Origin: Lotus japonicus
Taxonomy: Eukaryota; Streptophyta; Magnoliopsida; Fabales; Fabaceae
Assembly: GCF_012489685.1 (NCBI RefSeq)
Contig: NC_080046.1
Span: 27,968,223-28,032,222, forward strand
DNA length: 64,000 bases
Direction: 5' to 3'
Below, piece by piece: positions 2,111 to 48,087 of this stretch; position 1 is the first letter of the stretch; every line of letters begins with the position of its first letter. A program made the translations under genes and the position numbers. Below the pieces are notes generated by a model, which saw only the letters and a list, made by a program, of their open reading frames with translations, did no database searches and had not been told where the DNA came from.

Positions 2111-2532
2111 ACAAACAAAGCCAAGGTGCTAGGGTCAACTTACAGAATACAATAGATATACAATCAACATGCGATAGAGGGGGGTATGTTTATATGTTGT
2201 ATATATACATATAAGTTCTGCATTGTATCAAATCTCTAATACAATTCAATCATCAATACCTCAACAAATATAGTTAGAGTGCATGATATGTCAATGCAAC
2301 GTCAATTAAGAGGGTTCCGGAGGAAATAGGCTGGGCACGATCGAGTCGGTCCTAACACTGGCATTGTGTCGACCATAACCCTCGGGTGTCACTTACAACC
2401 TTGAAATAGTCGGATCAGTCCTAACCCTGCGGGTCGAATTTTCCCTCCGCTATGCCTGACATCAACAGGTCGATCCTAACCACACAGTCGATCATATCCC
2501 CCATCGAATGGCCGAGTTTCCCGAAGGCATGC

Positions 2533-3050
2533 TGTACCCGAAGGTATATACTGTACCCGAAGGTATATAGATATACTGTACCCGAAGGTATATACTGTAC
2601 CCGAAGGTATATAGATATACTGTACCCGAAGGTATATACTGTACCCGAAGGTATATAGATATATTGTACCCGAAGGTATATACTGTACCCGAAGGTATAT
2701 AGATATACTGTACCCGAAGGTATATACTGTACCCGAAGGTATATAGATATACTGTACCCGAAGGTATATACTGTACCCGAAGGTATATAGATATACTGTA
2801 CCCGACGGTATATACTGTACCCGAAGGTATATAGATATACTGTACCCGACGGTATATACTGTACCCGAAGGTATATAGATATACTGTACCCGAAGGTATA
2901 TACTGTACCCGAAGGTATATAGATATACTGTACCCGACGATATATACTGTACCCGAAGGTATATAGATATACTGTACCCGACGGTATATACTGTACCCGA
3001 AGGTATATAGATATACTGTACCCGACGGTATATACTGTACCCGAAGGTAT
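2533..3050 (-). repeat. 44-bp minisatellite in the B 3' LTR (about 12 copies)
   Basis: Each 44-bp unit is CTGTACCCGAAGGTATATA (19 bp) followed by the same sequence with a GATATA extension (25 bp). The array is almost perfectly regular. An A-to-C variant (CCCGACGG) recurs in the first half-unit of copies toward the right end. Long open frames on the minus strand through this array are a by-product of its lack of stop codons. Confidence 0.95.
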
Positions 3051-5474
3051 ATGTCGATTCGGCGACAAAAGACAATTAATTATGAAAGGAGTGCGATCAC
3101 CCTTGATGACTTCTTGAGTCATCTGACTCATCAAATCTCGATGGTCAAAAACTGCTCCGACCCAAACTCAAAACAACCCAAGAGTTAGTGTCGGTCAATA
3201 CAACACAACTCCACCAACAAGAATACACGAGGGTCTAGTGTCGGTCAATACAACACAGCCAAAACAAAACCCAGAGTCTGTGCCGGTCAATACAACACGA
3301 CTCGAACAACACTACCAGGAGTACTAGAGTACTCGGTGACTTTCAATCATCACCATAGCCCACCTTGATGGCTTTCCCAATTCCAAACTCTCCAAACCCA
3401 CAACATAAGTCGACTTTTCCCCGCCTTTCATAAATATTTTTCCCCTTCAGTTCTCCTATGCTTAAACGTTAATAAAAATGATTTCAATTCAAATTAGTCA
3501 AATTATGAGTTTATTTCTCAAAGTCTAAGTTTCCCAAGTCTTTATTTTTCGAAAGCTCTATCATTCTAAGTTTCCAAAAAATCAACCACCCAAAATACAT
3601 TTCCCGGGGAAAGTCTAGGAATTCCAACGAATCCCAACAAATGGCTAAGTCTCAAACCCCACATTCGGACTTGCCTAGGGTTGTTCATCCAACCCGAAAT
3701 GTCAAAGATCACCAGATCAATGAACCTCCACTCCGAAGTTGCGTCGAACGCTCAATTCAACACATCATCAATATCATAAGTTATGAAAACAATCATAACA
3801 ATAAATCATCATCATAAACAACATCAGATAAAGCATAAGTCGAATTTATCGACGCCTATCATGCAATCATAGCTAAATATAGCAAGTTGCCCTAACCTCG
3901 AGCTGTTCCAGCTTCGCAAACAAAGTTCTCCTCAAACAATTGCTCTGAGTATTCCAAAGTTCCTTCAACTGAACCTCGGAGGAAAACAAAGCAGAAACCA
4001 AACAAAATCGATTAGTTCGATCGCAAAACAATACATAAACGATAGACAAAGCATTAAAGCTTCAGAATACGACAATCGGGTACGAAAGGACAAGTTTTCG
4101 AAAACGAAAAACTCCCCCCTAAAGGTAATAACCCACGGCCTCAAAGGAAAAAGGGCTTCGACTCCTTTTCTTCGATCAAATCAATTCACAAGGTAGTTTT
4201 AGGGTAAAACTAAGGCAAAGAAACTGTCAGAACAATTTTCGGACAATCGGGCCGAAATACGACTATCCAGGGGCATTTTGGTCCAAAATAAAGGCTCAAA
4301 ACTTCAAAGTTATCAGTTCTGAAAACAAATTTGACAGCAATGATCCTCATGACATCCGTGACAACAAATCCTAAAGGCACGAAGTCAGATTAAGTCTTTT
4401 CGACAATAAAGTTTCGAAATGTGAGACAAAAAGGGTTTTGAAACAGTTTTTCAGATCCTGGACAACTGGATCACAATCAGCGTTTACTGACAGAGGTTTT
4501 AGACTCAGGGGAACGTAAGGAACATAACCCAACCAAGAAATCGAAGAAATCAGACCATTTTAGAAAAAGCTCAAAACTGTGAGCACAGAAACGACTTCAG
4601 AAACGCAACAGAAACAACAATCAGAGGTAGGTATCGTGTTAGTTACCTCGATACCTAGAAGTAGGGACGAACTGCACGAAGATTGGTCAAGTTTTCGCGA
4701 AAATCTCCTCCCCCCTTGCTCTCCACGAAATTCAGCCACAAAAGGAAGAAAATGAAGGAATTTTTGCTTTTTGAGCTATTTATAGGCAGGCGAAATCGCG
4801 GGAAAATGAAAATTTCGCGATTCCGATTTTTGCAGCACGATCACCGTGGAATTCTAAGAGAGATTCTGGCGTCAGAATTCCAGAACTCAAAACAAATATC
4901 TAAGATTTGGGAAAAACGATATCCAAAACGCCAAAAGCGGTGTAAGTTAGTCTGTCCCGAAAAACTACTTTTTGCTGTGATGCTCAGACGACAAAACTTC
5001 CAACAGAAGAAAGATTGGAAATGTCGAAACAATCTGGCCACGCGAACGGAATCTTCGTTAGATGTCCCGAATAGAAAAAGTCTTCATCCTTCGCTCAAAA
5101 CTAAGGTTTCGAAGCAAGGAAATTAGCGTCGGCGGACATCCGAAAAGTTAAACCTATCGTGCGTACAGTCCAGAGTTCCGAAATGAAACGCTGGTCGATG
5201 GAAAAATAAAGAGAAACTTTAAATTTTCCAAGAGTTCGAAATCTCACTTAAAACGTTGCTTTAAGAGCGAAATAGCCTATTCTGGACATGCTCGCCATAA
5301 GGCAGGTGTGCAGACGACTCGCACTAGCTCCGAAAGAAACAACGCCACATTCCTCGAGCAATTCCTGAACTTTCTTCTTCATTAATCTTTCTCAAATATC
5401 AAACTCCTGTCACGCTTACACTGATTCCACGCGTGAGTCGGAAATTAACTTGTTCCGAAAATCCGGGTCTTACA

Positions 5475-7841: not shown

Positions 7842-9014
7842 CTAAGTTAGGCGTGTTGCACACGCTACGAGAGTAATGAAGCGTATTATACTGGAATGCG
7901 AAAGAATGGGTAGAAGGTTACCATCGTTCTTACGCTCTCCTCCTGTTAACCCATCAGCTCCCTCACCGTCCATGATATAAACCCTTCCTCTAGCAGCAGG
8001 GCGCTTTACCCTTGCAGTGTTAACGGATGGCTCCCTCTTGGGCGCCTTACAGTCCACGGCTAGATGCCCCACTCGGTTGCAATTAAAGCATCTTGGTCCA
8101 GTCGCTGAACACTTGTCAGCAAAATGTCCAGTCTTCCCACACCTGAAACATGTCACACCCTTGTTGTCGGTTTGATTCCCTGCACCTCCAGTAGCAATGG
8201 TCATCGGTTTGTACTGTCCCGGGGTAAAACCTTCCCCTATAGGACGCTGATAAGGCTTCTTCATCTGAAACTTTCCTTTTCCTTGATAGCTCCGGGAACT
8301 TGACCTCATTGGTCCCCTAGTTCCAGCCCGATCCATCCTCCTATTCTTCATCAGTTCCACCTCGGTGGCCTTCTCAACCAAAGCTTGAAACCTCATAATC
8401 CCCAACGGTCTCACTGAGTCCTCAATGTCAGCTCTCAGTCCCCTCACAAAGCGCTTGCAGATATAGGGTTCATCAACCTGATCACGGAAAAACCGGAAGT
8501 GCTTGGCCAAAGATTCCAACTTAGCAGCATATTCCGGAATAGTCATGCTCCCTTGACGAAGAGTCAGAAACTGCGACTCACGCTCGTCACGAGCACTATC
8601 AGGAAAATACTTCTCCAGAAAAGCAGCACGAAAAGAATTCCAGTTCACCTCAACATGGTTTGCCTCCATCATCCCTCTGGTGCCCCTCCACCAGTACTCA
8701 GCATCGCCCAGTAGTAGATAAGTTGCCAGGCCCACCTTAGCCCCTTCACTAGTCTGTAGTACTTCGAAAATCTTCTCTATCTCTTGGATCCAGAGATTCG
8801 CCTCGTCCGGGTCAGTCCCGCCCGTGAACTTGGGTGGATTCTGTCTTATGAAATTATTCAATCCCCTGTTCTGGTCCAGAGATGCTTCCCTCTGACGCAG
8901 GTGTAGCTCGCGTGCGTCCTCAGCAGCACGCCTCTGTGCATTGTCATTCGTTTGTACAGTCATCGCTTGGACCAAAGTGGCCACCATCTCAGCAAGTTGG
9001 TTCGCGTTCACCAT
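7842..9014 (-). CDS. gag: Gag polyprotein of element B, intact (390 aa)
   Basis: Complete Gag of a Tekay-type gypsy element, starting at the ATG at 9014, about 210 bp downstream of the LTR edge. The gag domain spans roughly residues 70-230, with WIQEIEKIF, YLLLGDAEYWW and the [10 protein letters not shown] block shared with C. A basic Gly-rich linker precedes two CCHC zinc knuckles, CFRCGKTGHFADKC and CFNCNRVGHLAVDC (about residues 285-320), which would bind the element RNA. The frame stops just after, where C continues into protease. Compared with A it has many amino-acid differences yet no stop, so the gag frame has stayed open in two separate copies whose pol regions are dead. Gag made here might serve the element itself, with enzymes supplied by a relative such as C. 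Confidence 0.9.
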   Translation of the reverse strand: MVNANQLAEMVATLVQAMTVQTNDNAQRRAAEDARELHLRQREASLDQNRGLNNFIRQNPPKFTGGTDPDEANLWIQEIEKIFEVLQTSEGAKVGLATYLLLGDAEYWWRGTRGMMEANHVEVNWNSFRAAFLEKYFPDSARDERESQFLTLRQGSMTIPEYAAKLESLAKHFRFFRDQVDEPYICKRFVRGLRADIEDSVRPLGIMRFQALVEKATEVELMKNRRMDRAGTRGPMRSSSRSYQGKGKFQMKKPYQRPIGEGFTPGQYKPMTIATGGAGNQTDNKGVTCFRCGKTGHFADKCSATGPRCFNCNRVGHLAVDCKAPKREPSVNTARVKRPAARGRVYIMDGEGADGLTGGERKNDGNLLPILSHSSIIRFITLVACATRLT

Positions 9015-9225
9015 GTTCTGTATTCGTTTAGCAAACAGTCAGTACCAATCATAAGATAGTATTATGCATAGCTATACAATATGATTAGGTAGCAACTTCA
9101 ATCAATTAAAGCGAAGATCGCTTGGCAGACAATCAATTTTTACTCTTTGCAGAGTCACACGACCTAGCACAGAAGACCTATTCCCCAAAGACTCTCGAAA
9201 GACTCGACAAGCTCTGATACCACAA
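9015..9225 (-). promoter_or_regulatory. Leader and primer-binding site of element B
   Basis: Plus-strand GCTCTGATACCA at 9211-9222 is the reverse complement of TGGTATCAGAGC, the usual site for priming by initiator tRNA-Met. It sits three bases from the LTR edge. The remaining bases up to the gag ATG are untranslated leader. Confidence 0.85.
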
Positions 9226-9610
9226 TGTAACACCCCGATTTCCAGGTGTCACTTTAATAACCAAAAATAAACTTTACGCGGAAAACAGGTAATTTTTTTT
9301 TTGATTGTTTCCTTTTAATAAAAGCAATAAAGAAATAAAAACAAAGCCCAACAACTAAACTAACCGATAAACAACATATACAAAGGTACAGCCTCTGCTG
9401 CACTATCCCGTCACGCGCACACGCAGTGACTCCAAGGTAACATGCTCGTAGGCGAATATATACAAACCAAAACTGTACGCAAAAGCATCAAATATACCAC
9501 TATCCAAGAGAAAGTCGGCCTCAAAATGGCCTCAACCCAAGACCCCTATAGTCCGACAGACTCTCTGTGATCCTCAGCAAGAAACCACACAAAAGCCATA
9601 TATCGGGAAC

Positions 9611-9850
9611 CTACCCGGTCCCAAAAGTAAGACGAATCAGAGCTATGACAGTGACAACCAACTCAAAAGACTCTAACCACCCATATCCCACACTACTATC
9701 ATCGACTCTCCCTCGATCAGCCATGAAGTCCGGGTCCTCGTCGAAAGCTTCAGTAATAGACATTTCGCTCCGGGTCTTTCCCGCACAACGAATCATCACG
9801 AACCGGCTGACAGACGCCTGGCAGCAGGCCGACCGCCCAAACACAAACAT
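9611..9850 (-). pseudogene. Collapsed remnant of the LTR-encoded ORF in the B 5' LTR
   Basis: Same 79-codon residue as in the partner LTR at 1871-2110; the conserved start Met and most conserved blocks are missing. Being identical in both LTRs, the collapse predates the insertion of B. Confidence 0.6.
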
Positions 9851-10265
9851 ACAAACAAAGCCAAGGTGCTAGGGTCAACTTACAGAATACAATAGATATA
9901 CAATCAACATGCGATAGAGGGGGGTATGTTTATATGTTGTATATATACATATAAGTTCTGCATTGTATCAAATCTCTAATACAATTCAATCATCAATACC
10001 TCAACAAATATAGTTAGAGTGCATGATATGTCAATGCAACGTCAATTAAGAGGGTTCCGGAGGAAATAGGCTGGGCACGATCGAGTCGGTCCTAACACTG
10101 GCATTGTGTCGACCATAACCCTCGGGTGTCACTTACAACCTTGAAATAGTCGGATCAGTCCTAACCCTGCGGGTCGACTTTTCCCTCCGCTATGCCTGAC
10201 ATCAACAGGTCGATCCTAACCACACAGTCGATCATATCCCCCATCGAATGGCCGAGTTACCCGAA

Positions 10266-10821
10266 GGCATGCTGTACCCGAAGGTATATACTGTACCGAA
10301 GGTATATAGATATACTGTACCCGAAGGTATATACTGTACCCGAAGTATATACTGTACCCGAAGGTATATAGATATACTGTACCCGAAGGTATATACTGTA
10401 CCCGAAGGTATATAGATATACTGTACCCGAAGGTATATACTGTACCCGAAGGTATATAGATATACTGTACCCGAAGGTATATACTGTACCCGAAGGTATA
10501 TAGATATACTGTACCCGAAGGTATATACTGTACCCGAAGGTATATAGATATACTGTACCCGACGGTATATACTGTACCCGAAGGTATATAGATATATGTA
10601 CCCGAATATATACTGTACCCGAAGGTATATAGATATACTGTACCCGAAGGTATATACTGTACCCGAAGGTATATAGATATACTGTACCGAGTATATACTG
10701 TACCCGAAGGTATATAGATATACTGTACCCGAGGTATATACTGTACCCGAAGGTATATAGATATACTGTACCCGAAGGTATATACTGTACCCGAAGGTAT
10801 ATACTGTACCCGAAGGTATAT
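10266..10821 (-). repeat. Irregular 44-bp minisatellite in the B 5' LTR
   Basis: Same 19+25-bp unit as at 2533-3050 but with many small indels inside units (for example CTGTACCGAAGG, CCCGAAGTATATA, TGTACCGAGTATATA) and a different copy number. The partner array is almost perfect, so the irregularity is either fast array evolution or consensus error in this copy. Confidence 0.9.
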
Positions 10822-13459
10822 GTCGATTCGGCGACAAAAGACAATTAATTATGAAAGGAGTGCGATCACCCTTGATGACTTCTTGAGTCATCTGACTCAT
10901 CAAATCTCGATGGTCAAAAAATGCTCCGACCCAAACTCAAAACAACCCAAGAGTTAGTGTCGGTCAATACAACACAACTCCACCAACAAGAATACACGAG
11001 GGTCTAGTGTCGGTCAATACAACACAGCCCAAACAAAACCCAGAGTCTGTGCCGGTCAATACAACACGACTCGAACAACACTACCAGGAGTACTAGAGTA
11101 CTCGGTGACTTTCAATCATCACCATAGCCCACCTTGATGGCTTTCCCAATTCCAAACTCTCCAAACCCACAACATAAGTCGACTTTTCCCCGCCTTTCAT
11201 AAATATTTTTCCCCTTCAGTTCTCCTATGCTTAAACGTTAATAAAAATGATTTCAATTCAAATTAGTCAAATTATGAGTTTATTTCTCAAAGTCTAAGTT
11301 TCCCAAGTCTTTATTTTTCGAAAGCTCTATCATTCTAAGTTTCCAAAAAATCAACCACCCAAAATACATTTCCCGGGGAAAGTCTAGGAATTCCAACGAA
11401 TCCCAACAAATGGCTAAGTCTCAAACCCCACATTCGGACTTGCCTAGGGTTGTTCATCCAACCCGAAATGTCAAAGATCACCAGATCAATGAACCTCCAC
11501 TCCGAAGTTGCGTCGAACGCTCAATTCAACACATCATCAATATCATAAGTTATGAAAACAATCATAACAATAAATCATCATCATAAACAACATCAGATAA
11601 AGCATAAGTCGAATTTATCGACGCCTATCATGCAATCATAGCTAAATATAGCAAGTTGCCCTAACCTCGAGCTGTTCCAGCTTCGCAAACAAAGTTCTCC
11701 TCAAACAATTGCTCTGAGTATTCCAAAGTTCCTTCAACTGAACCTCGGAGGAAAACAAAGCAGAAACCAAACAAAATCGATTAGTTCGATCGCAAAACAA
11801 TACATAAACGATAGACAAAGCATTAAAGCTTCAGAATACGACAATCGGGTACGAAAGGACAAGTTTTCGAAAACGAAAAACTCCCCCCTAAAGGTAATAA
11901 CCCACGGCCTCAAAGGAAAAAGGGCTTCGACTCTTTTTCTTCGATCAAATCAATTCACAAGGTAGTTTTAGGGTAAAACTAAGGCAAAGAAACTGTCAGA
12001 ACAATTTTCGGACAATCGGGCCGAAATACGACTATCCAGGGGCATTTTGGTCCAAAATAAAGGCTCAAAACTTCAAAGTTATCAGTTCTGAAAACAAATT
12101 TGACAGCAATGATCCTCATGACATCCGTGACAACAAATCCTAAAGGCACGAAGTCCGATTAAGTCTTTTCGACAATAAAGTTTCGAAATGTGAGACAAAA
12201 AGGGTTTTGAAACAGTTTTTCAGATCCTGGACAACTGGATCACAATCAGCGTTTACTGACAGAGGTTTTAGACTTAGGGGAACGTAAGGAACATAACCCA
12301 ACCAAGAAATCGAAGAAATCGGACCATTTTAGAAAAAGCTCAAAACTGTGAGCACAGAAACGACTTCAGAAACGCAACAGAAACAACAATCAGAGGTAGG
12401 TATCGTGTTAGTTACCTCGATACCTAGAAGTAGGGACGAACTGCACGAAGATTGGTCAAGTTTTCGCGAAAATCTCCTCCCCCTTGCTCTCCACGAAATT
12501 CAGCCACAAAAGGAAGAAAATGAAGGAATTTTTGCTTTTTGAGCTATTTATAGGCAGGCGAAATCGCGGGAAAATGAAAATTTCGCGATTCCGATTTTTG
12601 CAGCACGATCACCGTGGAATTCTAAGAGAGATTCTGGCGTCAGAATTCCAGAACTCAAAACAAATATCTAAGATTTGGGAAAAACGATATCCAAAACGCC
12701 AAAAGCGGTGTAAGTTAGTCTGTCCCGAAAAACTACTTTTTGCTGTGATGCTCAGACGACAAAACTTCCAACAGAAGAAAGATTGGAAATGTCGAAACAA
12801 GTCTGGCAACGCGGACGGAATCTTCGTTAGATGTCCCGAATAGAAAAAGTCTTCATCCTTCGCTCAAAACTAAGGTTTCGAAGCAAAGAAATTAGCGTCG
12901 GCGGACATCCGAAAAGTTAAACCTATCGTGCGTACAGTCCAGAGTTCCGAAATGAAACGCTGGTCGATGGAAAAATAAAGAGAAAATTTAAATTTTCCAA
13001 GAGTTCGAAATCTCACTTAAAACGTTGCTTTAAGAGCGAAATAGCCTATTCTGGACATGCTCGCCATAAGGCAGGTGTGCAGACGACTCGCACTAGCTCC
13101 GAAAGAAACAATGCCACATTCCTCGAGCAATTCCTGAACTTTCTTCTTCATTAATCTTTCTCAAATATCAAACTCCTGTCACGCTTACACTGATTCCACG
13201 CGTGAGTCGGAAATTAACTTGTTCCGAAAATCCGGGTCTTACATCGAGTGAGGTCGGAGACGTTGTTTGGCTAATCACTGCATTGCATGCACTCATTAAG
13301 TGGTTTAAACACGGCGAGATACCGGACCACGGCGGATTCCAAAATTGGTTATAAGACCAGGATTTCCGCGTAAGAGCACTGCTAGGTGACTCTTAGTAGC
13401 AGACCGAAATGGCAGACCTACGGGTTATGGCTGATCTGGCTACCTTGGTTTGGTGTAAG

Positions 13460-13665
13460 AGACACGCGGGCAGAATGGTCCCACCGTTGCTGGTGCTAGG
13501 ATTGATCCGGTTGATGTCCATCCCAGAGGCACGCGAGCAGAATGGTCCCACCGTTGCTGGTGCTAGGATTGACTCGTTTGATGTCCATACCTATGTTTGG
13601 TTAAGAGGCACGCGGGCAGAATGGTCCCACCGTTGCTGGTGCTAGGATTGATCCGTTTGATGTCC
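13460..13665 (+). repeat. Three tandem copies of a 60-80-bp block in the type 2 LTR
   Basis: The block containing CAGAATGGTCCCACCGTTGC, GGTGCTAGGATTGA and GATGTCCAT occurs three times. The solo LTR at 37243-41360 has a single diverged copy near 38500-38560, so this is a local expansion. Confidence 0.85.
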
Positions 13666-13967
13666 ATCCGTTCCGGATTGCATATTGGTTGACTGGGTTA
13701 ATCTGCATATCATTTCATGCAACATGCATACTGACTTAGTTGTTGAGTGTGTTTGATACTTGTTAATTCTACTTGAGGCATGTTAACTGTGATTTATTGT
13801 TGTTTACATTCATTGTGAAATATACAACCCTAGGATGTAATCCCTAGTTATAAGCCTAAGTGGCTAATCTTTTATCGGTATCTATTGGTGGTATTATTTA
13901 TATAATTCTTTGGAGTTGACCCTCGCGTCTTCTGTGTGTGCTTTGGCGAACAAATGCCCTTTGTCAG

Positions 13968-14130
13968 ATGTCTTCGGCGGGCTGATTCATGATGGTTCAT
14001 CCTTCGGGAGGAACTAGGGTTGAGATGCTGGAACAGGAGCGCATCGCGGTAGCGAGAGGAGGACGGATGGTGTACATAGAGTAGGTCGTTCTGGATTTCG
14101 AATTCGGACGACGATCATGCTAGCATGTAG
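13968..14130 (+). pseudogene. Broken LTR-encoded ORF in the truncated type 2 LTR
   Basis: Starts like the intact ORF of the solo LTR after a TGTCAG, but the conserved Trp of ADWF is replaced by a stop (TGA). It keeps MVHPSGG, then jumps across about 330 missing bp to ERIAVARGG, and has another in-frame stop before the degraded acidic end. The deletion differs from the one in B, so the ORF was lost independently. Confidence 0.75.
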
Positions 14131-14609
14131 GTTTTAGTGCTGGTGTGAGCTCCTCAAGATGGGAATTAGTGTAGGAGTAGAGTCTTAGCTCTGAACATCA
14201 TTTGTTTCTTTTGGGACAGGGTAGTTTCCCACCTATAGCTTTTTGTGTGGTTTCTTTACGGGAATCACAGAGAGTTGGTTGGACTTAGGAGGTCTTATTT
14301 TCAGACCATTGGGTCAACTTATTCTCAGTTTTGAGGGATGGTGTTGCGGACACTTCACCCTTTCATTCGGTTTGTACATATTGCCTACGGGCGTTACACT
14401 TTTCTTTCCGTCACTGGAGGTTTACTCGTGACGAGGTTGCTACTTACAGCGGGGGCTGTTTATATATTGTATATTAGTTTTATTGTTTTTCGCATTTGGG
14501 TTTCATTTAATTCAGTCTTGTCTTAGTTATTATCAAAAAAAAAAATATTCACGTTTTTCCGCATTAAGTTTACTTTTGGTTACTAAAGTGACGCCACCGA
14601 AATCGGGGT

Positions 14610-14709: not shown

Positions 14710-14970
14710 CAACCTATCTGTTGTTGGGAGATGCTGAATACTGGTGGAGAGGCGCCAGAGGAATGATGGAGGCAAATCATGTGGAGGTGAACTGGAATTC
14801 TTTTCGAACTGCTTTTCTCGAGAAGTATTTCCCAGACAGTGCTCTGACGAGCGTGAATCACAGTTTCTGACTCTGAAACAAGGAAGCATGACCATTCCGG
14901 AGTATGCTGCAAGTTAGAGTCTCTGGCAAAGTACTTTCGGTTTTTCCGTGATCAAGTTGATGAACCCTAC
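14710..14970 (+). pseudogene. gag: Gag N-terminal part of element C with two single-base deletions
   Basis: From 14712 the frame reads TYLLLGDAEYWW as in A and B. One base is missing near 14840 (GTGCTCTGACGAGCG against GTGCTCGTGACGAGCG in B) and another near 14910 (GCTGCAAGTTAGAG against GCTGCTAAGTTGGAA). Together they move the frame to that of the ORF that starts at 14971. Being next to the gap, these could be assembly errors; otherwise the gag of C is broken. Confidence 0.75.
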
Positions 14971-17900
14971 ATGTGCAAGAGATTTGTGAGGGGATTGAGG
15001 CCTGATATTGAAGATTCGGTGAGACCATTGGGGATCATGAGATTCCAGGCATTGGTTGAGAAGGCAACTGAGGTGGAATTGATGAAGAATCGGAGATACA
15101 ACAGGGCTGGAACAGGAGGACCGGCGAGGTCGACACCACAGAGTTTTCAGGGAAAAGGGAGGTTTCAGGCGAGGAAGCCATATCAACGACCTGCGGGGAG
15201 AGGGTTTACCCCGGGATCTTACAAGCCGATGGCTGCTGCTACTTCAGGAGGGTCGGGAAGCCGTACCCCAAACCGTGAAGTGACTTGTTTCCGGTGTGGA
15301 GGAACCGGGCACTATGCAAACAATTGCACGAGGCCACCAAGATGCTACAACTGCAATAAATCTGGGCATCTGGCTACGGAATGCAAGGCACCGAAGGTTG
15401 AACCGGCTGTGAATGCTGTTAGTGGGAAGCGCCCAGTGGCTAAGGGAAGAGTGTATACAATGGATGGAGAAGAAGCTGAAGGAGCTGATGGGTTGATCAG
15501 AGGGGAATGTGAAATTGACGGTAATCTTCTAACTGTACTCTTTGATTCTGGTGCAACTCATTCATTTGTCTCTAAGGATTGCGTATCAAGACTGCATCTG
15601 CCTATTACTACTTTGAGTTTTGATCTTATGGTAACTACACCTGCTAGGACTCTAATTGCTAATGCCGCATGCATGCACTGTTCAGTAGTATATAAAGATA
15701 GAACTTTTCATGCCAACCTAGTATGTCTATCCCTTAAAAACCTAGATGTAATCCTCGGGATGGATTGGTTATCCCACTACCATTGTCTTTTGGACTGTAG
15801 TCGAAAGAAAGTGGTGTTCCCAGACTCGGATCTTTTCGAGTATCTTTCTATTAACCACATTAGTGCATCGTTGAGCGAGGGCACTCAGAAGTACTTTTCA
15901 TTGCTAAGTCTGGAGGGGAAGAAGGAATCGGATATTCAAGGTATTCCGGTGGTTCGAGATTTTGCGGATGTTTTTCCTGGAGATGTACCTGGACTGCCGC
16001 CTGTACGCGATGTGGAGTTTGTGATCGACATTGTACCCGGAACCGGACCGATTTCGATCGCACCTTACCGTATGGCACCTGCGGAGTTAGCGGAGTTGAA
16101 ATCTCAGTTGGAGGATCTTTCGGCAAAAGGATTCATTCGACCAAGTGTTTCACCGTGGGGAGCGCCAGTGTTGTTAGTTAAGAAGAAAGACGGAAGGTCG
16201 AGATTATGTGTGGATTATCGACAACTGAACAAGGCGACGATCAAGAACAGATACCCGTTGCCGAGGATAGATGATTTGATGGATCAATTACGAGGGGCTG
16301 CTGTATTTTCGAAGATAGATTTGAAATCAGGCTATCATCAGATCAGAGTGAAGACTGAGGATATACCGAAGACTGCATTCAGAACACGCTACGGACACTA
16401 CGAGTACTTAGTGATGCCGTTTGGAGTGACAAATGCACCTGCTGTTTTCATGGATTACATGAACCGCATCTTTCATGAATTCTTAGATCGGTTTGTGGTG
16501 GTGTTTATTGATGATATACTGATATACTCGAAGGATGCAACGGAACATGAAGGACATTTGCGCCAAGTTCTACAAGTGTTGAGAGAGAAGAAGCTGTATG
16601 CGAACCCTTCTAAGTGTGAATTTTGGCTGGAGAAAGTCAATTTCTTAGGCCACGTTATCTCAAAGGAAGGCATAGCTGTGGATCCGGCGAAAGTAGAGAC
16701 TGTTTTGGCTTGGGAGCAACCGAAGACAGTGACAGAAATCAGAAGTTTTGTGGGTTTGGCTGGATACTATAGACGCTTCATTGAGGGATTTGCCAAGATC
16801 GTTGGACCTTTGACTCAACTAACGAGGAAGGATCAACCTTTTGCATGGACTGAGGCGTGTGAATCAAGTTTTCAGACTCTGAAGGAACGTTTGACGACGT
16901 CACCTGTGCTTATTTTGCCGCAACCAGAAGAACCTTATGAAGTTTATTGTGATGCTTCGTATCAAGGCTTGGGATGTGTGCTGATGCAACATCGAAAAGT
17001 GGTGGCGTATGCTTCGAGACAGTTGAAGACGCATGAGAGGAACTATCCGACTCATGATTTGGAGTTAGCTGCCATTGTGTTTGCGCTGAAGATCTGGAGA
17101 CATTACCTCTATGGTTGTACTTTCACGATATTTAGCGATCACAAGAGCCTTAAATACTTGTTTGATCAGAAGGAGTTGAACATGAGGCAACGAAGATGGA
17201 TGGAGTTCATCAAAGACTATGAGTTTACGTTGCAATATCACCCTGGGAAGGCGAACGTAGTTGCTGATGCTTTGAGCAGAAAGATGCATGTCTCGTCAAT
17301 GATGGTTAAAGAGCTGGAGTTACTGGAACAATTTCGAGATATGAGTCTAGGTGTGACACCGTCTGAGGGAAAGTTGAAGTTCGGTATGATCAGAATTGCC
17401 AGTGGACTGATGGAAGAGATTAGAGAGCAACAACTGCAAGATGAGTTTCTGCTGGAGAAGAGGAACTTGGTAAATCAAGGGAAAGACCCGGAATTCAAGA
17501 TCGGAACGGATGATATTTTAAGATGCAAAGACAGAGTGTGTGTACCCAATAATTCAGAACTGAGAAGGATGATCATGGATGAAGGGCACAAGAGCAAATG
17601 GAGTATTCATCCGGGAATGACCAAGATGTATCAAGATTTGAAGCTGAATTTCTGGTGGCCAGGAATGAAGAAACAAGTGGCCGAGTATGTAGCTGCATGT
17701 TTGACTTGTCAGAAGGCCAAGGTAGAGCATCAAAGACCTGCTGGTATGCTACAGAGTTTAGACGTGCCAGAATGGAAATGGGATAGTATATCCATGGATT
17801 TTGTGGTGGCTTTGCCAAGAACACAGAAGAGACACGATTCGATTTGGGTGATTGTAGATCGTTTGACCAAGTCAGCGCATTTTCTACCAGTGAGAACTAC

Positions 17901-18837
17901 CTACAATGTGGAGAAGTTGGCCGAGATCTATGTGGCGGAGATTGTGAGACTACATGGAGTTCCGACAAGTATTGTGTCTGATCGGGATCCAAAGTTTACT
18001 TCGCACTTTTGGGGAGCTCTTCATGATGCGTTAGGAACCAAGCTGAGGTTGAGTTCGGCGTATCATCCACAAACGGATGGGCAAACAGAGAGAACTATTC
18101 AGTCGCTAGAGGATCTACTACGGGCTTGTGTGCTAGATAACAGAGGAAGCTGGGATGATCTTCTGCCATTGGTTGAATTCACCTACAACAATAGTTTCCA
18201 TGCGAGCATTGGGATGGCACCGTATGAAGCTTTGTATGGTCGGAAGTGTAGGACACCTTTGTGTTGGTATCAAGATGGGGAGAGTTTGTTGATTGGGCCA
18301 GAAATGCTGCAACAGACGACTGAGAAGGTTAAGCAGATCAGAGAACAGATGAGAGCTTCACAGAGCAGACAGAAGAGCTATGCTGATCAGAGACGTAGAA
18401 CCCTAGAGTTTGAGGAAGGTGACCATGTGTTTCTACGAGTTACTCAGACTACGGGGGTTGGACGAGCTATTAAGTCAAGGAAACTTGCGCCAAAGTTTAT
18501 TGGGCCTTATCAAATCACTCGACGTGTTGGACCAGTTGCGTATCAGATTGCACTACCGCCATTTCTTTCCAACATTCATGATGTATTTCATGTGTCGCAG
18601 TTGAGGAAGTACATTCCAGACCCGACTCATGTGATCGTGCCAGACAACGTTGAACTGAAGGATGATTTGACCTTTGAGGCACCGCCAGTGAGTATTGGGG
18701 ATAGGAGAGTGAAACAGCTGAGGGGAAAGCAGATTTCGTTGGTAAAAGTGATATGGAACAAGGATACGGGAGATGCTACATGGGAATTGGAAGATAAGAT
18801 TAAGGAATTGTACCCCGGACTTTTTGCTGAACTCTGA
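14971..18837 (+). CDS. pol: Gag-pol polyprotein of element C (1288 aa from the first Met after the frameshifts)
   Basis: One continuous gag-pol frame, as usual for Tekay/Del elements. Gag C-terminus with two CCHC knuckles (near residues 106 and 125), aspartic protease with DSGATHS at Asp192, and reverse transcriptase with [13 protein letters not shown] and the catalytic FIDDILIYS near 511. RNase H begins near 655 with CDASYQGLG and includes [10 protein letters not shown]. Integrase has an HHCC zinc finger (GHKS, IHPG, CLTC) and catalytic Asp near 943 and 1003 and Glu near 1040, in [15 protein letters not shown]. The C-terminus from about 1245 ([10 protein letters not shown]...VKVIWNK...ATWELED) is a Tekay-type chromodomain, expected to steer integration to heterochromatin. 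All catalytic residues I looked for are present, so only the frameshifts upstream count against function. The real start codon is lost in the gap; the Met at 14971 is internal to gag. Confidence 0.93.
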
Positions 18838-18874: not shown

Positions 18875-19565
18875 TGTAAGACCTGAATTTTCAGAACAAG
18901 CTAGTTTCCGACTCACGCGTAGGATCAGTGTAAGCGTGACAGGAGTTTGATATTTGAGGAAGATTAATGAAGAAGAAAGTTCAGGAATTGCTTGAGGAAT
19001 GTTGCGTAGTTGTTTTCGGAGTTAGTGCGAGTCGTCTGCACACCTGCCTTAGGGCGAGCGTGTCCAGAATAGGCTATTTCGCTCTTAAAGCAACGTTTTG
19101 AGTGAGATTTCGAACTCTCGGAAAATTTAAAGATTCTCTTTATTTTTCCATCGACCAGCGTTTCATTTCGGAACTCTGGACTGTACGCACGATAGGTTTC
19201 ACTTTTCGGATGTCCGCCGACGCTAATTTCTTTGCTTCGAAACCCTATTTTCGAGCAATGGATGAAGACTTTTTCTATTCGGGATTTCTAACGAAGATTC
19301 CGTCCGCGTTGCCAGACTTGTTTCGACATTTCCAATCTTTTTTCTGTTGGAAGTTTTGTCGTTTGAGCATCACAGCAAAAAGTAGTTTTTCGGGGCAGAT
19401 TAACCGACACCGCTTTTGAGTTTTTCGATATCGTTTTTCCCAAATCTTAGATGTTTGTTTTGAGTTCTGGAATTCTGACGCTAGAATCTCTCTTAGAATT
19501 CCATGGTGATCGTGCTGCAAAAATCGGAATCGCGAAATTTTCATTTTCCCGCGATTTCGCCCGCC

Positions 19566-19573
19566 TATAAATA
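19566..19573 (+). promoter_or_regulatory. TATA box of the C LTR, with potential downstream splice donor
   Basis: TATAAATA in a CCGCCTATAAATAGG context, conserved in the B LTRs. About 130 bp downstream, CAAG|GTAACT (GT at 19703-19704) is a plausible donor. B (GAG|GTAACT) and the solo type 2 LTR (GAG|GTATAG) have a GT at the same position, each 25 bp before the end of a shared ACCTCTG. Confidence 0.65.
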
Positions 19574-21040
19574 GGCGAAAAAGCTAATATCTTCTTCATT
19601 TTCACTCATTTGGCCGAAAATTGTAGAGAGAGAGGGAGAGGAGAGATTTCGAGAAATCTTGACCAATCTTCGTGCAGTTCGTCCCTACTTCTAGGTATCA
19701 AGGTAACTAACACGATTTCTACCTCTGATTGTTGTTTCTGTTGCGTTTCTGAAGCCGTTTCTGTGCTCTAAGTTTTGAGCTTTTTCTAAAATTGTCCGAT
19801 TTCTCTGATTTCTCGCTTGGGTTATGTTCCTTATGTTCCCCTGAGTCTAAAACCTCTGTCAGTAAACTCTGTTTTCGATTCAGTTGTCCAGGATCTGAAA
19901 AATTGACTCAAAACTCTTTTTGTCTCACATTTCGAAACTTTATTGTCGTAAAGCTATAATCTGACTTCGTGCCTTTAGGATTTGTTGTCACGGATGTCAT
20001 GAGGATCGTTGCTGTCAAATTTGTTTTCAGAACTGATAACTTTGAAGTTTTGAGCCTTTATTTTGGACCAAAATGCCCCTGCGTAGTCGTATTTCGACCC
20101 GATTGTCCGAAAATTGTTCTGACAGTTTCTTTGCCTTAGTTTTACCCTAAAACTACCTTGTAAACTGATTTGATCGAAGAAAAAGAGCCGAAGCCCTTTT
20201 CTCCTTATGGCCGTGGGCTATTTCTAAGGGGGGGAGTTTTTCGTTTTCGAAAACTTGTCCTTTCGTACCCGTTTGTCGTATTCTGAAGCTTTGATGCTTT
20301 GTCTATCGTTTATGTATTGTTTTGCGATCGAACTAATCGATTTTGTGTGGATTCTGCTTTGTTTTTCCTCCGAGGTTCAGTTGAAGGAACTTTGGAAGTT
20401 TCAAGGCATTCCTGTGAAGGAGATTTGATTTGCGAAGCTGGATCAGCTCGAGGTTAGGGCAACTTACATATTAGCTATGATTGCATGATAGGCGTCGATA
20501 AATTCGACTTATGCTTTATCTGATGTTGTTTATGATGATGAGTTGATGTTATGATGCTTTTCCATAACTTGTGATATTGTGATATTGTTGGATTGTGCGT
20601 TTTGACGCAATTTCGGAGTGGAGATTCATTGATCTGGTGATCTTTGATATTTCGGGTTGGATGAACAACCCTAGGCAAGTCCAAATGTGGGGTTTGAGAC
20701 TTAGCCATATGTTGGTTTACTTAGACTTTCCCCGGGAAATGTATTTTGGGTGGTTGATCCTTGAAAACTTAGAATGATAGAGCTTTGAAAAACTAAAGAC
20801 TTGGGAAACTTAGACTTTGAGAAATAAACTCATAACTTGACTAATTCGAATTGAAACAATTTTTATTAACGTTTAAGCATAGGAGAACTGAAGGGGAAAA
20901 TATTTACGAAATACGGGGAAAAGTCGACTTTGTTGTGGGTTTGGAGAGTTATCGGAATTGGGGGAAGCCACTAAGGTGAGCTATGGTGATGATTGAAAGT
21001 CACCGAGTACTCTAGTACTCTTGGGGATTGTTGTGGAGCC

Positions 21041-21179
21041 GTGTTGTATTGACCGACACCTAGTGCTCTTGTTGTTTGGGCTGTGTTGTATTGACCGACA
21101 CTAGACCCTTGTGTTTTCTTGTTGGAGTTGTGTTGTATTGACCGACACTTACTCCGAGTTGTGTTGTATTGACCGACAC
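21041..21179 (+). repeat. Four copies of a 19-bp hairpin repeat in the C LTR
   Basis: GTGTTGTATTGACCGACAC occurs at 21041, 21083, 21130 and 21161 with unequal spacers. Each copy can fold with a six-pair stem (GTGTTG against CGACAC, one U-G pair). Three copies occur at the matching place in each B LTR (3188-3206, 3238-3256, 3280-3298 on the minus strand). Confidence 0.85.
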
Positions 21180-21272
21180 TAACTCATTGGGTTGGTTGAG
21201 ATTGGGTTGTGAGCTAAACACTTTCGTGGTAAGGGCGATTCGTTGTTTGGCTAACCACGTTGCATTCAATCG

Positions 21273-21509
21273 GGTGAATAACGGGAATGGTTCACCTGTG
21301 CATATCATGGTGAATAACGGGAATGGTTCACCTTGCATTAATGATGAATAACGGGAATGGTTCATCATTCGGTGAATAACGGGAATGGTTCACCAAGGAT
21401 GAATAACGGGAATGGTTCATCCAGGATGGATTTCATCCAGGATGGATAACGGGAATGGTCCATCCATAGTGAAAATGCTTCACTTGTGGCGAACGGGAAC
21501 GCGTCACAA
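21273..21509 (+). repeat. Array of eight small hairpins with covarying stems
   Basis: Six units share the loop TAACGGGAATGG. Their stems are GGTGAA/TTCACC (21273, 21309, 21371), ATGATGAA/TTCATCAT (21341), GGATGAA/TTCATCC (21397) and GGATGGA/TCCATCC (21440). A short GGATG/CATCC hairpin lies between at 21424. Two more follow: AGTGAA/TTCACT (21468) and TTGTGGCG/CGTCACAA with one G-U pair around AACGGGAACG (21484). Both arms change together while the loop stays fixed. Confidence 0.88.
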
Positions 21510-21746
21510 ATCCGGATTCATATTGTGCATTTCACGCATACATTCATGCTGACTGAGACTGTGTGCTGTTTGTTTATTGAAGTAATGCTAGAGCCATAAC
21601 ATGCTAGGATTATTTATATGCTTATATAACAACTTATATATATACCCTGTCACATGTTGTGTGTATATGTACTTATTGCTGTGAGTTGACCCTAGCGCCT
21701 TGGCTTTGTCTGTATGTTTGTCTTTGGGCGGTCGGCCTGCTGCCAG

Positions 21747-22415
21747 ATGTCGATGGCCGACTGGTTCTCGACGGTCTCTCCCTCGGGGGGGATCAGATAT
21801 GAGTTGCTGGATAGGGATGCCCCCACCGCTTGGGTGATCGATGTGGCTGGTCACCGGGCGACGTATAGGGGAAGGGTCATGGAGGACCGGACGGATGAGC
21901 GAGGACGCCTGACGAGCGGAGTGCTACGGCGTATGGAGCTGAGTTTTGACTTGCCGCCCTCAGTTCATTGTGGACCAGGCACTGGACATGCACCACCTGC
22001 ACCACCTCCGACTTCACCTTCTGTTGAGGAGGACCCAGAGGAGATCGAGCCTGCTGCTGCTGCTATATCTGTTGTGCCACCTCCGGCTACTGCCATCGCT
22101 TCTACCGACGTGGCGTCGTCCTCTAGGCTCGTACAGTCGAGGAGGGAGTCTGTTGTCCCATCTGCCTCACGTCTCTTATCTTTCTCTTCACCGCACGGCT
22201 ACCGTGTGGACCCCTTGATGAGGGTGGAGGAGGAGGATGTTCTCACAGGAGAGGTGGATGTGGAGACCGGCTCGACTAGGGCGGTGCGCAGGACAGTGAG
22301 GAGGGAGGTTATGGACTTGGACACCGAGATGATTACGGTGGATTCCGACTCTGACTCCGAGAGCAGTGGGGAGAGCTACTCGCCGAGCAGCGATGAGGAG
22401 GAGGATGATTGGTGA
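21747..22415 (+). CDS. LTR-encoded protein of unknown function, type 1 (222 aa)
   Basis: This ORF lies wholly within the C LTR. I do not recognise the family. I chose the ATG at 21747 because similarity to the solo-LTR homologue (38211-37732) starts exactly there; the frame is open to 21714. Residues 1-78 align without gaps with 51 identities, including ADWF, PSGGIRYE, HRATY, MED, SGVLRR, LPP and VHCGPG; 25 of these 51 residues use different codons. A Pro-rich stretch follows, and then a long low-complexity part with an Arg-rich segment and a strongly acidic Ser/Asp/Glu tail ending in DEEEDDW. No signal peptide or membrane segment is evident. The ATG follows CTGCCAG directly, a possible splice acceptor. 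In a 5' LTR copy this would be the first sizeable ORF on the transcript, ahead of gag. Role unknown; an accessory or regulatory protein is a guess. Confidence 0.72.
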   Translation: MSMADWFSTVSPSGGIRYELLDRDAPTAWVIDVAGHRATYRGRVMEDRTDERGRLTSGVLRRMELSFDLPPSVHCGPGTGHAPPAPPPTSPSVEEDPEEIEPAAAAISVVPPPATAIASTDVASSSRLVQSRRESVVPSASRLLSFSSPHGYRVDPLMRVEEEDVLTGEVDVETGSTRAVRRTVRREVMDLDTEMITVDSDSDSESSGESYSPSSDEEEDDW

Positions 22416-22885
22416 GCTGAGCTGGGAGGGTAGGTTAGGATTAGCGACATTTTTTGTGTAGAGCTCTGATCGTCAGTTTCTTGTTGGGACAGGGTAGGTT
22501 CCGATGTGTGGCTTTTTGTGTGGTTCTTTTGAGGAGGATCACAGAGAGTCTGTCGGAGTATAGGGGTCTTCCTTTCAGGCCATTTTTGAGTGCCGACTTT
22601 CTCTTGGATAACTGTATTTTGATACTTTTACTCACAGTTCTGGTTTGTATATTTGCCTGCGGGCGTACTACTTTGGAGTCACTGCGGCTTCGCGTGACAT
22701 GGAGTGCAGCCGAGGCTGTACAGATGTATATATATTTGTATATCGGTTAGTTTAGTTGTTGGGTGTTGTCTCTACTTCTTTATCGTTTTGATTTAAAGGA
22801 AAGAAACGAAAAAAAAATTTACCTGTTTTCCGCGTAAAGTTTATTTTTGGTTACTAAAGTGACACCTGGAAATCGGGGTGTTACA

Positions 22886-25012: not shown

Positions 25013-25070
25013 TGTTTTTCACACCGGCCCGGATCACTGAACACTGTTAGGTGTGGTAATCAGAACTTGC

Positions 25071-25082: not shown

Positions 25083-25084
25083 AT

Positions 25085-37242: not shown

Positions 37243-37731
37243 TGTAACACCCCGATTTCGGTGGCGTCACTTTAGTAACCAAAATAAACTTAATGCGGAA
37301 AAACGTGGATATTTTTTTTTTTCGATAATAACTAAGACAAGACTGAATTAAATAAAACCCAACAATAACAATAATCAGAACTAATATACAATATATAAAC
37401 AGCCCCCGCTGTAGTAGTAACCTCGTCATGAGTAAACCTCCAGTGACGGGAAGAAAAGTGTAACGCCCGAAGGCAATATATACAAACCAAAAGAAAAGGG
37501 TGAAGTGCCCGCAACACCATCCCTCAAAACTGAGAATCAGCTGACCCAATGGCCTGAAAATAAGACCTCCTAAGTCCAACCAACTCTCTGTGATTCCCGT
37601 AAGGAAACCACACAAAAAGCTATAGGCGGATCTACCCTGTCCCCTAAGTAACAAATGAAGCAAGACTGTCAGAGCTAAAACTCTACTCCTACACTAATCC
37701 TAACTCGAGGAGCTCATACCAACACTCAAAA

Positions 37732-38211
37732 CTATGTGCTAGCATGATCGTCGTCTGAATCAGAATCCAGAACGACCAAGTCTACTAACCCTATCCGTCC
37801 TCCCCTCGCAACCGCAGTACGCTCCGATGCTGGACTCACGGGCTTAGGGCCCGAACCCTGATCATCGATGATCGCAACAGAGGGTGCACTAGACCCTGCC
37901 GAAGGCACTCCCACTGGAATCTCCTCTGAGGGATCCTCCTCCTCTGAAGATGACGGTGGCGGCGGTGGTCCTCCGAATCCTGGTCCGCAGTGAACGCCCG
38001 GTGGCAAGTTGAAGCTGATAGAGCATCGCCTCAACACTCCTGACCTCAAGAGTCCTCCACTGTCCACGTGGTCCTCCATGATGCGCCCCGAATACGTCGC
38101 TCGATGGCTCGCGGGGTCAACCACCCACGACCAGGGGTCGTCCTGATCGATCATCTCATACCTAATCCCCCCCGAAGGGTGGACCATGGTGAACCAATCC
38201 GCAATATTCAT
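37732..38211 (-). CDS. LTR-encoded protein of unknown function, type 2 (159 aa)
   Basis: Homologue of the C LTR ORF at 21747-22415, lying in a solo LTR. The ATG at 38211 follows TTTTGTCAG directly, and similarity between the two subfamilies begins at this Met. Conserved blocks in order: IADWF, HPSGGIRYE, HRATY, RIMED, SGVLRR, LPPGVHCGPG. A Pro/Ser stretch (PPPPPSSSEEEDPSEE) and a short acidic tail (VLDSDSDDDHAST) follow; the middle variable part is about 60 residues shorter than in C. The frame extends upstream to 38424 but nothing there is conserved. Function unrecognised. Confidence 0.72.
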   Translation of the reverse strand: MNIADWFTMVHPSGGIRYEMIDQDDPWSWVVDPASHRATYSGRIMEDHVDSGGLLRSGVLRRCSISFNLPPGVHCGPGFGGPPPPPSSSEEEDPSEEIPVGVPSAGSSAPSVAIIDDQGSGPKPVSPASERTAVARGGRIGLVDLVVLDSDSDDDHAST

Positions 38212-38929
38212 CTGACAAAAGGCGTTGTCCGCCAAAACACACACAGAAGACGCGAGGGTCAACTCTAAAGAACTATGTAGATAATAAACCCAATAGGTAC
38301 AAATAATAAATAGCCACTTAGGCTTATAACTAGAGATGTCATTCCTAGGGTTGCATGTTCCATATCGAACGTAAAGGACAACAATAACAAATAGCATGTT
38401 CCAAATAGGATTGACAAATAACAATCACACTCGACGACTAAATTAGTATGTATGTTGCATGATATGCAATGCAGGTTAACCCAGTCAACCAATATGCATT
38501 CCGGAACGGATGGACATCATCGGATCAGCCCTTCACCAGCCACGGTGGTGCCATTTCGGCCCGTGATGCCTCTTACTCCAACATCATCATGTAGCCAGAT
38601 CAGCATAAAACCCGAAGGCCTGCCATTTCGGTCTGCTACTAAGAGTCACCTAGCAGCGCTCTTACGCGGAAATCCTGGTCTTATAACCAATTTTGGAATC
38701 CGCCGTGGTCCGGTATCTCGCCGTGTTTAAACCACTTAATGAGTGCATGCAATGCAGTGATTAGCCAAACAACGTCTCCGACCTCACTCGACACGTCGCC
38801 ACGTGTTCTAGCTAAATTAATGTCTCTAAAAGCTTACCCTAAGGTAAAGTCGATTCTGCGACAAAATACAATAATCATTAAACGAGTGCAACCACTCACG
38901 ATGACTCTTCGGGTCATCAATACTCTCAC

Positions 38930-39065
38930 GAAGTCTCACGCTTCAGTGAAGTTTCATGCTCTCACAAGGTCTCACGCCTCAGTGGAGTTCCATGCTTTCC
39001 ACAAGGTCTCACGCCTCAGTGGAGTATCCCGCATTCACAAGGTCTCACGCCTCAGTGAAGCTCCT
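38930..39065 (-). repeat. Tandem repeats in the solo LTR
   Basis: Four imperfect units carrying CACAAGGTCTCACGCCTCAG at spacings of about 30-40 bp. They lie where B has the 44-bp array and C the hairpin array, judging by the common flank that in B and here ends in TTTTGTCGC followed by an AATCGAC block. Confidence 0.75.
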
Positions 39066-48085: not shown

Positions 48086-48087
48086 AT

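What the first reader, a model, noticed from the sequence alone, without database searches (positions are those of the whole stretch)
21747..22415. Protein-coding ORF conserved inside the LTRs of two diverged gypsy subfamilies
The C LTR ORF (222 aa) and the solo type 2 LTR ORF (38211-37732, 159 aa) align from their first Met over 78 residues without a gap. By hand I count 51 identical residues; 25 of those use a different codon in the two copies. That pattern is expected from selection on protein and not from simple DNA similarity. Both have Pro/Ser stretches and acidic tails. LTRs normally hold no protein gene; the known analogue is the LTR-encoded gene of some animal retroviruses, to which I see no similarity. 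I recognise no family.
Basis: partly seen in the sequence, partly recalled or inferred. Interest (0 to 1): 0.9.

Follow-up and report, generated by a model that had tools for sequence, protein, structure and literature searches.

The report
Protein gene inside plant retrotransposon LTRs
In the legume Lotus japonicus, a large family of jumping elements carries a selection-maintained protein gene inside the repeated ends (LTRs) that are normally thought to hold only control sequences, so a complete copy carries the gene twice.

Summary
The C LTR ORF (21747-22415 +) and the ORF of the solo type 2 LTR (37732-38211 -) share 51 of 78 residues without a gap, 25 of them with different codons. dN/dS is 0.21 in this frame, 1.15 and 1.79 in the others. 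With 31 chosen ORFs of five groups from this genome (Lotus japonicus by protein names), omega is 0.196; omega=1 fits 103 log units worse. The two LTRs of single insertions look nearly neutral (22 pairs, pN/pS 0.73). So the protein is kept while elements replicate and drifts after insertion. One C and one T2 copy checked have gag-pol and the full ORF; two pol-defective groups lack it (A) or keep about its first 73 codons (D). That fits a trans-acting protein. It has a conserved N-domain, a Pro/Ser linker and a SUMO-interaction-like tail; chickpea has relatives. No known domain or fold was found. My reading: an accessory protein, probably a SUMO-binding nuclear adaptor (inferred). My searches met LTR ORFs in print only for animal retroviruses.

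The parts
21747..22415 (+). LTR ORF of the C type, 222 aa (an in-frame ATG at 21714 would give 233 aa)
   Evidence: dN/dS
21747..21980 (+). Conserved N-terminal domain (78 codons), predicted mostly beta
   Evidence: no gap in the 31 representatives; block-mean pLDDT 80-88 for residues 21-70
22311..22361 (+). C-terminal SUMO-interaction-like motif, MDLDTEMITVDSDSDSE
   Evidence: name of the motif recalled
18875..22885 (+). C-type LTR (3' LTR in the window), 4011 bp; holds the ORF at LTR positions 2873-3541
19566..19574 (+). Likely main TATA box (TATAAATAG), LTR position 692; also at 691/692 in the two A LTRs and as TATATATAG at 710 in T2
20453..20458 (+). Possible 5' splice site CTCGAG|GTTAGGGC; the aligned T2 sequence reads CTTCAG|GTGAGGGC
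   Evidence: splicing not shown
21635..21645 (+). Second TATA-like run about 110 nt before the ORF; no TATATAT or TATAAA[TA]A match at this place in T2
21744..21746 (+). CAG directly before the ATG; AG there in 74 of 79 ORFs that keep the ATG (possible 3' splice site)
37732..38211 (-). LTR ORF of the T2 type, 159 aa
37747..37785 (-). T2 SUMO-interaction-like motif, VDLVVLDSDSDDD
37243..41360 (-). T2 solo LTR, 4118 bp, ACTGA on both sides
13244..14609 (+). Truncated T2-type LTR with a decayed copy of the ORF (13968-14124, stops inside)
9226..13243 (-). A-type 5' LTR; flanks like C, but other sequence stands in place of the ORF from the ATG on
1485..5474 (-). A-type 3' LTR, same structure without the ORF
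7845..9038 (-). gag ORF of the A element; no match to RT, RNase H or the integrase core of C within 5475-9225
14857..18837 (+). Ty3/gypsy pol ORF (1326 aa) upstream of the C 3' LTR

Best explanation
The ORF is a genuine protein gene carried in the LTRs of Ty3/gypsy elements of Lotus (shown by codon-level selection between subfamilies). Because it lies inside the LTR, an insertion with two LTRs carries two copies and a solo LTR can keep one (shown). The protein works in trans for the element and is not needed in cis for a copy to be mobilised (suggested: pol-defective groups A and D amplified without a full ORF). Most likely mode (inferred): a small nuclear adaptor. Its N-terminal domain binds an element or host partner, and its C-terminal motif, VDLVVLDSDSDDD in T2 or MDLDTEMITVDSDSD in C, docks on SUMO or sumoylated chromatin or silencing proteins, to relieve silencing or steer integration. 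Expression (inferred): transcription starts behind the TATA box near LTR position 700, and a leader intron from AG|GT[TG]AGGGC to CAG|ATG brings the ORF forward; unspliced or otherwise spliced RNA serves gag-pol. My estimates: real selected protein gene 0.95; trans-acting 0.8; SUMO contact 0.4; anti-silencing or targeting role 0.3.
For: Gapless 78-codon block with 25 identical residues in different codons. dN/dS 0.21 against 1.15 and 1.79 in the other frames; 0 of 5000 random placements. Between groups in the N-domain: C-P3 dN 0.067, dS 0.551; ratios C-P6 0.16, C-T2 0.21, C-T3 0.16, T2-T3 0.23. 31 sequences, 78 codons: omega 0.196, lnL -2046.28 against -2149.64 at omega=1. 22 LTR pairs: 87.5 nonsynonymous to 41.5 synonymous, pN/pS 0.73, binomial p 0.13 against neutrality; between C and a P3 copy 61:61, Fisher p 0.005. 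The 3' flank in the LTR is 61% identical between C and T2 and has many gaps. Full ORF absent in A and cut in D; C copy L017 and T2 copy L018 have the ORF and long gag and pol frames. Motif: pattern hit in 29 of 31 representatives, the other two reading VIELVVLDSDSDDD and VINVIVLDSDSDDD; a chickpea tail reads WVDLTSEESD. Lotus-chickpea profile match 94%, E 1.4e-7. A Lotus database protein, I3SYR4, matches the D-type ORF at 99%.
Against: No direct evidence of translation or of any function. The motif was read by eye and with a loose pattern written after seeing it; no control for it was run. The models have pTM 0.35-0.39 and no fold match at E 0.001. The ORF lies 2.15-2.41 kb behind the assumed start site, with 45 (C) and 50 (T2) ATGs in an unspliced leader; the proposed splice leaves 8 and 4 and is unproven. 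Elements with N-terminal frameshifts in both LTRs exist (L071/L072, L077/L078). D, with 150 of 150 places at one score, keeps only the N-domain. Two of three T3 copies viewed have out-of-frame ATGs just upstream. Of six between-group Fisher tests, three have p 0.037, 0.068 and 0.13. Within P6 the ratio is 0.64-0.66. C copy L021 has the full ORF but a split gag-pol, so ORF and pol do not always go together in single copies.
Confidence: 0.62

Rival explanations
1. The ORF is an open frame in a GC-rich regulatory or RNA part of the LTR; the similarity is conserved DNA or RNA, not protein.
For: The downstream LTR part is also conserved between C, T2 and A, so the LTR has conserved non-coding stretches.
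Against: Changes concentrate at third positions (26/17/39); dN/dS is low only in the ORF's frame; omega=1 fits 103 log units worse; the A type does without the segment yet amplified.
Confidence: 0.03
2. A captured host gene that is still a host gene elsewhere; selection acted on the host gene rather than on the element.
For: NCBI names several Lotus LOC proteins of this family, some with other N-termini (P0007, P0010), and relatives exist in chickpea.
Against: Of 79 fetched ORFs with the start codon, 75 have the same LTR leader motif upstream; the purifying signal is between element groups. The context of the many places not fetched was not examined, so a host gene could have been missed.
Confidence: 0.1
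3. A real protein, but an upstream ORF that acts mainly as a translational switch on gag-pol, with little function of the product.
For: It precedes gag-pol in the 5' LTR; D keeps a shortened ORF at the same place.
Against: A switch does not need ratios of 0.12-0.23 in an 80-codon domain nor a conserved C-terminal motif.
Confidence: 0.08
4. A structural accessory: the protein joins the particle or helps RNA packaging or reverse transcription, with the acidic tail as a simple interaction or solubility tail, no SUMO contact.
For: Acidic tails and disordered linkers are unspecific; the N-domain is the best-conserved part.
Against: Motif order (hydrophobic V/I-D-L core, then acidic/Ser run) is kept between groups at dS above 1 and, loosely, in chickpea.
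Confidence: 0.35

Closest known systems
Additional ORFs (aORFs) of plant LTR retrotransposons, in particular the 5'aORF of sunflower Tekay group 2 (PMC11728184; abstract, passages and sections 2.4 and 2.5 seen)
   Same: Extra protein gene without known domain, upstream of gag-pol, Pro-rich and largely disordered, present in 500 of 523 copies in that paper, nuclear by prediction there
   Different: The passages I saw place it relative to gag-pol and do not say that it lies in the LTR; 402 aa with helices. Sequences were not compared. Here the ORF is inside the LTR, hence twice per element with two LTRs
Env-like and antisense aORFs between pol and the 3' LTR (review PMC7264820; abstract, outline and one term search seen)
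   Same: Conserved extra ORF in many copies of a family
   Different: Internal region, other position and partly other strand; that text has none of 'in the LTR', 'inside the LTR', 'within the LTR'
LTR-encoded superantigen ('LTR ORF', sag) of mouse mammary tumour virus (listing; details recalled)
   Same: Protein gene inside an LTR, so present twice per provirus
   Different: Animal retrovirus; sag lies in U3 and codes a membrane protein (recalled). Here the ORF lies downstream of the likely main TATA box; a membrane segment was not computed, none was noticed
Transposon-encoded anti-silencing factors of plants such as VANC of VANDAL21 (recalled, no call)
   Same: Would be the functional analogue if the anti-silencing reading is right
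   Different: DNA transposon; similarity not tested

Membership tests
Ty3/gypsy LTR retrotransposon (the carrier) | gag, PR, RT, RNase H, then integrase in that order; TG...CA LTRs; PBS and PPT | tested here: met
   Window pol frame has PR, RT, RNase H, integrase in order; gag, PR, RT and integrase in pieces of C copy L017, gag and integrase in pieces of T2 copy L018 (its RT was not scanned); LTR ends, PBS and PPT
Chromovirus, Tekay/Del lineage | Chromodomain behind integrase and RT phylogeny | tested here: inconclusive
   No chromodomain model hit at E 1; plant group II chromodomains may be missed; no RT tree made
Plant aORF of the 5' type | Conserved extra ORF upstream of gag-pol in many copies | tested here: met
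Plant aORF of the 5' type | Sequence homology to the described sunflower or grass proteins | not tested
   No such sequence was fetched
LTR-encoded gene (MMTV sag kind) | Whole ORF within the LTR | tested here: met
LTR-encoded gene (MMTV sag kind) | Homology to superantigen | tested here: inconclusive
   No viral structure match at E 0.001 and no Pfam match; no direct comparison made
SUMO-interacting proteins | Short hydrophobic core of V/I/L, often V/I-D-L, followed by acidic/Ser residues | tested here: inconclusive
   Pattern in 29 of 31 representatives, the other two visible by eye, but the pattern was written after seeing the sequences and had no control; motif definition recalled
SUMO-interacting proteins | Physical SUMO binding | not testable with these tools
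   Needs a binding assay

The most novel reading that the evidence does not exclude
The LTR itself is a gene cassette: promoter, spliced leader, ORF and 3' end within 4 kb, so very many insertions, solo LTRs included, can each express a SUMO-docking protein that counters host silencing in trans. It would be a legume-wide, LTR-encoded anti-silencing gene, exploited by pol-defective relatives that dropped it.
Probability: 0.22. Interest if true: 0.92.

Novelty: new variant of a known kind. Interest (0 to 1): 0.78.

Why it matters
LTRs are treated as non-coding when they are used to date insertions and to define regulatory parts. Here an LTR segment evolves as a protein between subfamilies and nearly as neutral DNA within insertions, a clean built-in contrast. 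If the protein counters silencing or guides integration, Lotus, where active retrotransposons are known (PMC2832683, passages), offers a direct test of how plant elements defeat host defence, and of why pol-defective groups drop the gene. It also warns annotators: several Lotus 'uncharacterized' LOC proteins belong to this LTR family.

Tried and rejected

Dropped rows. Of 91 ORFs read, 31 intact and diverse ones went into the codon analysis; left out were the 12 without the ATG, copies with stops and near-identical copies. In one search pairs with dS of 0 or of 3 and more were dropped before averaging: 13 of 33 C-T3, 21 of 110 P3-T3, 2 of 10 P6-T2, 5 of 55 P6-T3 and 1 of 1 T2-T2 for the N-domain; 6 of 6 C-T2, 10 of 10 P6-T2, 4 of 33 C-T3, 5 of 20 P3-T2, 16 of 110 P3-T3 and 19 of 55 P6-T3 for the rest. 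Stop codons are left out of all pairwise counts.

Literature searches behind the statement that I met LTR ORFs in print only for animal retroviruses: (no paper); listings only unless stated. One search (six phrasings) gave 14 papers; by titles and abstract starts none concerns a plant element. The two papers use 'LTR-encoded' for internal proteins or domains (passages). Subscription journals are mostly not in that library.

Full report
What is there. The window lies in a 554-Mb assembly. Protein look-ups name the best relatives Lotus japonicus. The C ORF (21747-22415 +) sits in a 4011-bp LTR, 18875-22885, at LTR positions 2873-3541. The T2 ORF (37732-38211 -) sits in a 4118-bp solo LTR, 37243-41360, with ACTGA on both sides. 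Paired-LTR copies elsewhere show LTR, PBS TGGTATCAGAGC, gag, pol, LTR. C copy L017 has a 1472-aa gag-pol frame, T2 copy L018 frames of 260 and 1202 aa. Pfam on pieces finds gag, PR, RT and integrase in L017, gag and integrase in L018, whose RT part was not scanned. C copy L021 has gag-pol split into 720 and 753 aa.

The observation. 51 of 78 identical, 25 of these with other codons, differences 26/17/39 by codon position. NG86: dS 1.47, dN 0.31, ratio 0.21; the two other frames give 1.15 and 1.79; 0 of 5000 random placements reach 51 identities. dS near 1.5 is close to saturation, so I looked for closer pairs.

More copies. Genome searches scored 150 places each: C (7026 candidates; 6 of 150 with a stop), T2 (8637; 3), P0003 (6618; 35), P0006 (5007; 21), P0011, called T3 (6469; 16). 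Many places come in pairs 8.2-8.8 kb apart, the spacing of two LTRs. The lists are ranked by protein score, so they favour intact copies, and lists of related queries overlap. I read 91 ORFs: 79 keep the start codon, 75 of these have the leader motif AGTTGAC[AC]CT and 74 an AG directly before the ATG.

Selection. From 31 intact, diverse ORFs, N-domain ratios between groups are 0.12 (C-P3, dS 0.55), 0.16 (C-P6), 0.20 (P3-P6), 0.21 (C-T2), 0.16 (C-T3), 0.17-0.20 (P3 or P6 with T2 or T3) and 0.23 (T2-T3). Within groups they are 0.14 (T3), 0.17 (C), 0.24 (P3) and 0.66 (P6). The rest of the ORF gives 0.25-0.48 between groups and 0.64 within P6; saturated pairs were dropped. A codon model gives omega 0.196; lnL -2046.28 free, -2149.64 at omega 1. 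The contrast is with the two LTRs of one insertion, which are identical at birth: 10 C pairs gave 6 nonsynonymous and 6 synonymous changes, ratio 0.34; 6 P3 pairs 50 and 23; 6 T3 pairs 31.5 and 12.5; together pN/pS 0.73, p 0.13 against neutrality. Six between-group pairs set against these counts gave Fisher p of 0.0049, 0.0055, 0.037, 0.13, 0.068 and 0.026. Caveat: pairs came from lists ranked by protein score, which lowers nonsynonymous counts; this works against the contrast.

Loss in pol-defective relatives. The A element of the window (LTRs 9226-13243 and 1485-5474, minus) has LTR flanks like C, but from the ATG on other sequence stands in place of the ORF. Its inside holds gag (80% to C), 90 residues that match the PR side weakly (46%) and the last 72 residues of the gag-pol frame; nothing matched RT, RNase H or the integrase core at E 1e-3. 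The A segment is found at 40 of 40 scored places at 100%, 1877 candidates, with several pairs 7.0-7.7 kb apart. A second group, D, was found through P0014 (UniProt I3SYR4, Lotus, named 'unknown'): 150 of 150 scored places at 99%, many in pairs about 7.73 kb apart. Two D elements, L122 and L123, match the C LTR on both sides of a gap from LTR position 3092 to 3538, that is after about 73 codons, leaving a 97-aa ORF with the N-domain only. Their gag match is partial (36-48%), and of pol there remain a stretch over the RT domain (residues 570-814, 81-91%), not covered by any open frame of 150 aa, and the last 71 residues. So among one A, two D, one C (L017) and one T2 (L018) element, a full LTR ORF goes with long gag and pol frames and a lost or cut ORF with defective pol. 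This is what a trans-acting protein predicts; five elements are few, and single copies such as L021 or solo LTRs can keep the ORF while pol is broken or gone.

Protein. The N-domain is predicted as beta strands (block-mean pLDDT 80-88 for residues 21-70), the middle is disordered, and residues 152-198 form a long hairpin in the C type. T2 and T3 lack the hairpin but keep the tail motif. The motif (VDLVVLDSDSDDD; IDLIVLDSDSDDD; MDLDTEMITVDSDSD) resembles SUMO-interacting motifs (recalled). No fold match was found.

Spread. A profile search returned 23 proteins at E 10 or better: 9 named Lotus, 8 unnamed, 6 chickpea. Lotus and chickpea profiles align over 60 columns with 94% probability, E 1.4e-7. 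Two of the six chickpea proteins (P0017, P0018) have both the N-domain and a WVDLTSEE tail; P0023 has only the tail side and P0020-P0022 only the N side. Whether the chickpea genes lie in LTRs was not testable here. The searches scored only the candidates sharing most words, so absence elsewhere is not shown.

Expression. C, A and T2 share a TATA box near LTR position 700. With a start 30 nt behind it (assumed), the ORF begins 2151 (C) or 2410 nt (T2) downstream, with 45 and 50 ATGs between. An AG|GT[TG]AGGGC sequence is aligned in C, A, D and T2; a splice from it to CAG|ATG would leave 857 and 855 nt with 8 and 4 ATGs. This is a model only. That I3SYR4 rests on a cDNA is recalled, not checked.

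Against. Frameshifts in a G run at codons 13-15 occur in old copies and in both LTRs of two elements. Both LTRs derive from one reverse transcription (recalled), so a slip in that step would appear in both, but it shows that such copies can insert. D shows that the tail can be lost without stopping amplification, in a pol-defective group. Nothing here shows translation.

Literature. The sunflower Tekay paper (PMC11728184; abstract, passages, sections 2.4 and 2.5) describes a 5'aORF with a nuclear signal and disorder. The aORF review (PMC7264820; abstract, outline, a term search) treats aORFs between pol and the 3' LTR; a 2025 review (PMC12786077; passages) mentions aORFs in general. The Lotus LORE1 paper (PMC2832683; passages) describes LORE1 and LORE2 as chromoviruses with long ORFs; I could not tell whether any element here is LORE2.

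Verdict. A protein-coding, selected LTR gene is well supported; its role is open. I rate it a new variant of a known kind (aORF), with position inside the LTR and the tail motif as the new features.

Noticed in passing
13244-22885: A T2-type LTR fragment at the 5' side, a pol frame (14857-18837) and a C-type LTR at the 3' side follow each other: looks like a chimera of two element types or the result of recombination.
   Followed up: partly
1485-13243 and places: A type: gag-bearing, pol-defective element with LTRs that lack the ORF; 40 of 40 scored places identical over the A segment.
   Followed up: partly
L122, L123; places: D type: abundant, near-identical pol-defective element whose LTR ORF is cut to the N-domain.
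   Followed up: partly
2441-3184 and 10242-10677: 44-bp tandem repeats inside the two A LTRs, arrays of different length in the two LTRs of the same element.
   Followed up: no
22886-25438 against 47735-50296, and 24355-26300 against 42522-44467: Long inverted stretches, 98% identical, that look Copia-type by eye (no domain search); the C LTR and the T2 solo LTR both abut such sequence.
   Followed up: no
C ORF codons 13-15 (21783-21791); L071, L072, L077, L078 and other copies without ATG: A run of G near the start looks like a frameshift hot spot of the ORF in old copies.
   Followed up: partly
L115 (T3 copy): The sequence directly before CAG|ATG does not resemble the usual LTR leader, although the ORF itself is intact.
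   Followed up: no
22462-22885, 37243-37651, 1485-1904: The last 400 nt of the LTR are conserved between C, A and T2 in blocks (GGGACAGGGTAG, ATCACAGAGAGT and others) with gaps between; could be RNA signals.
   Followed up: partly
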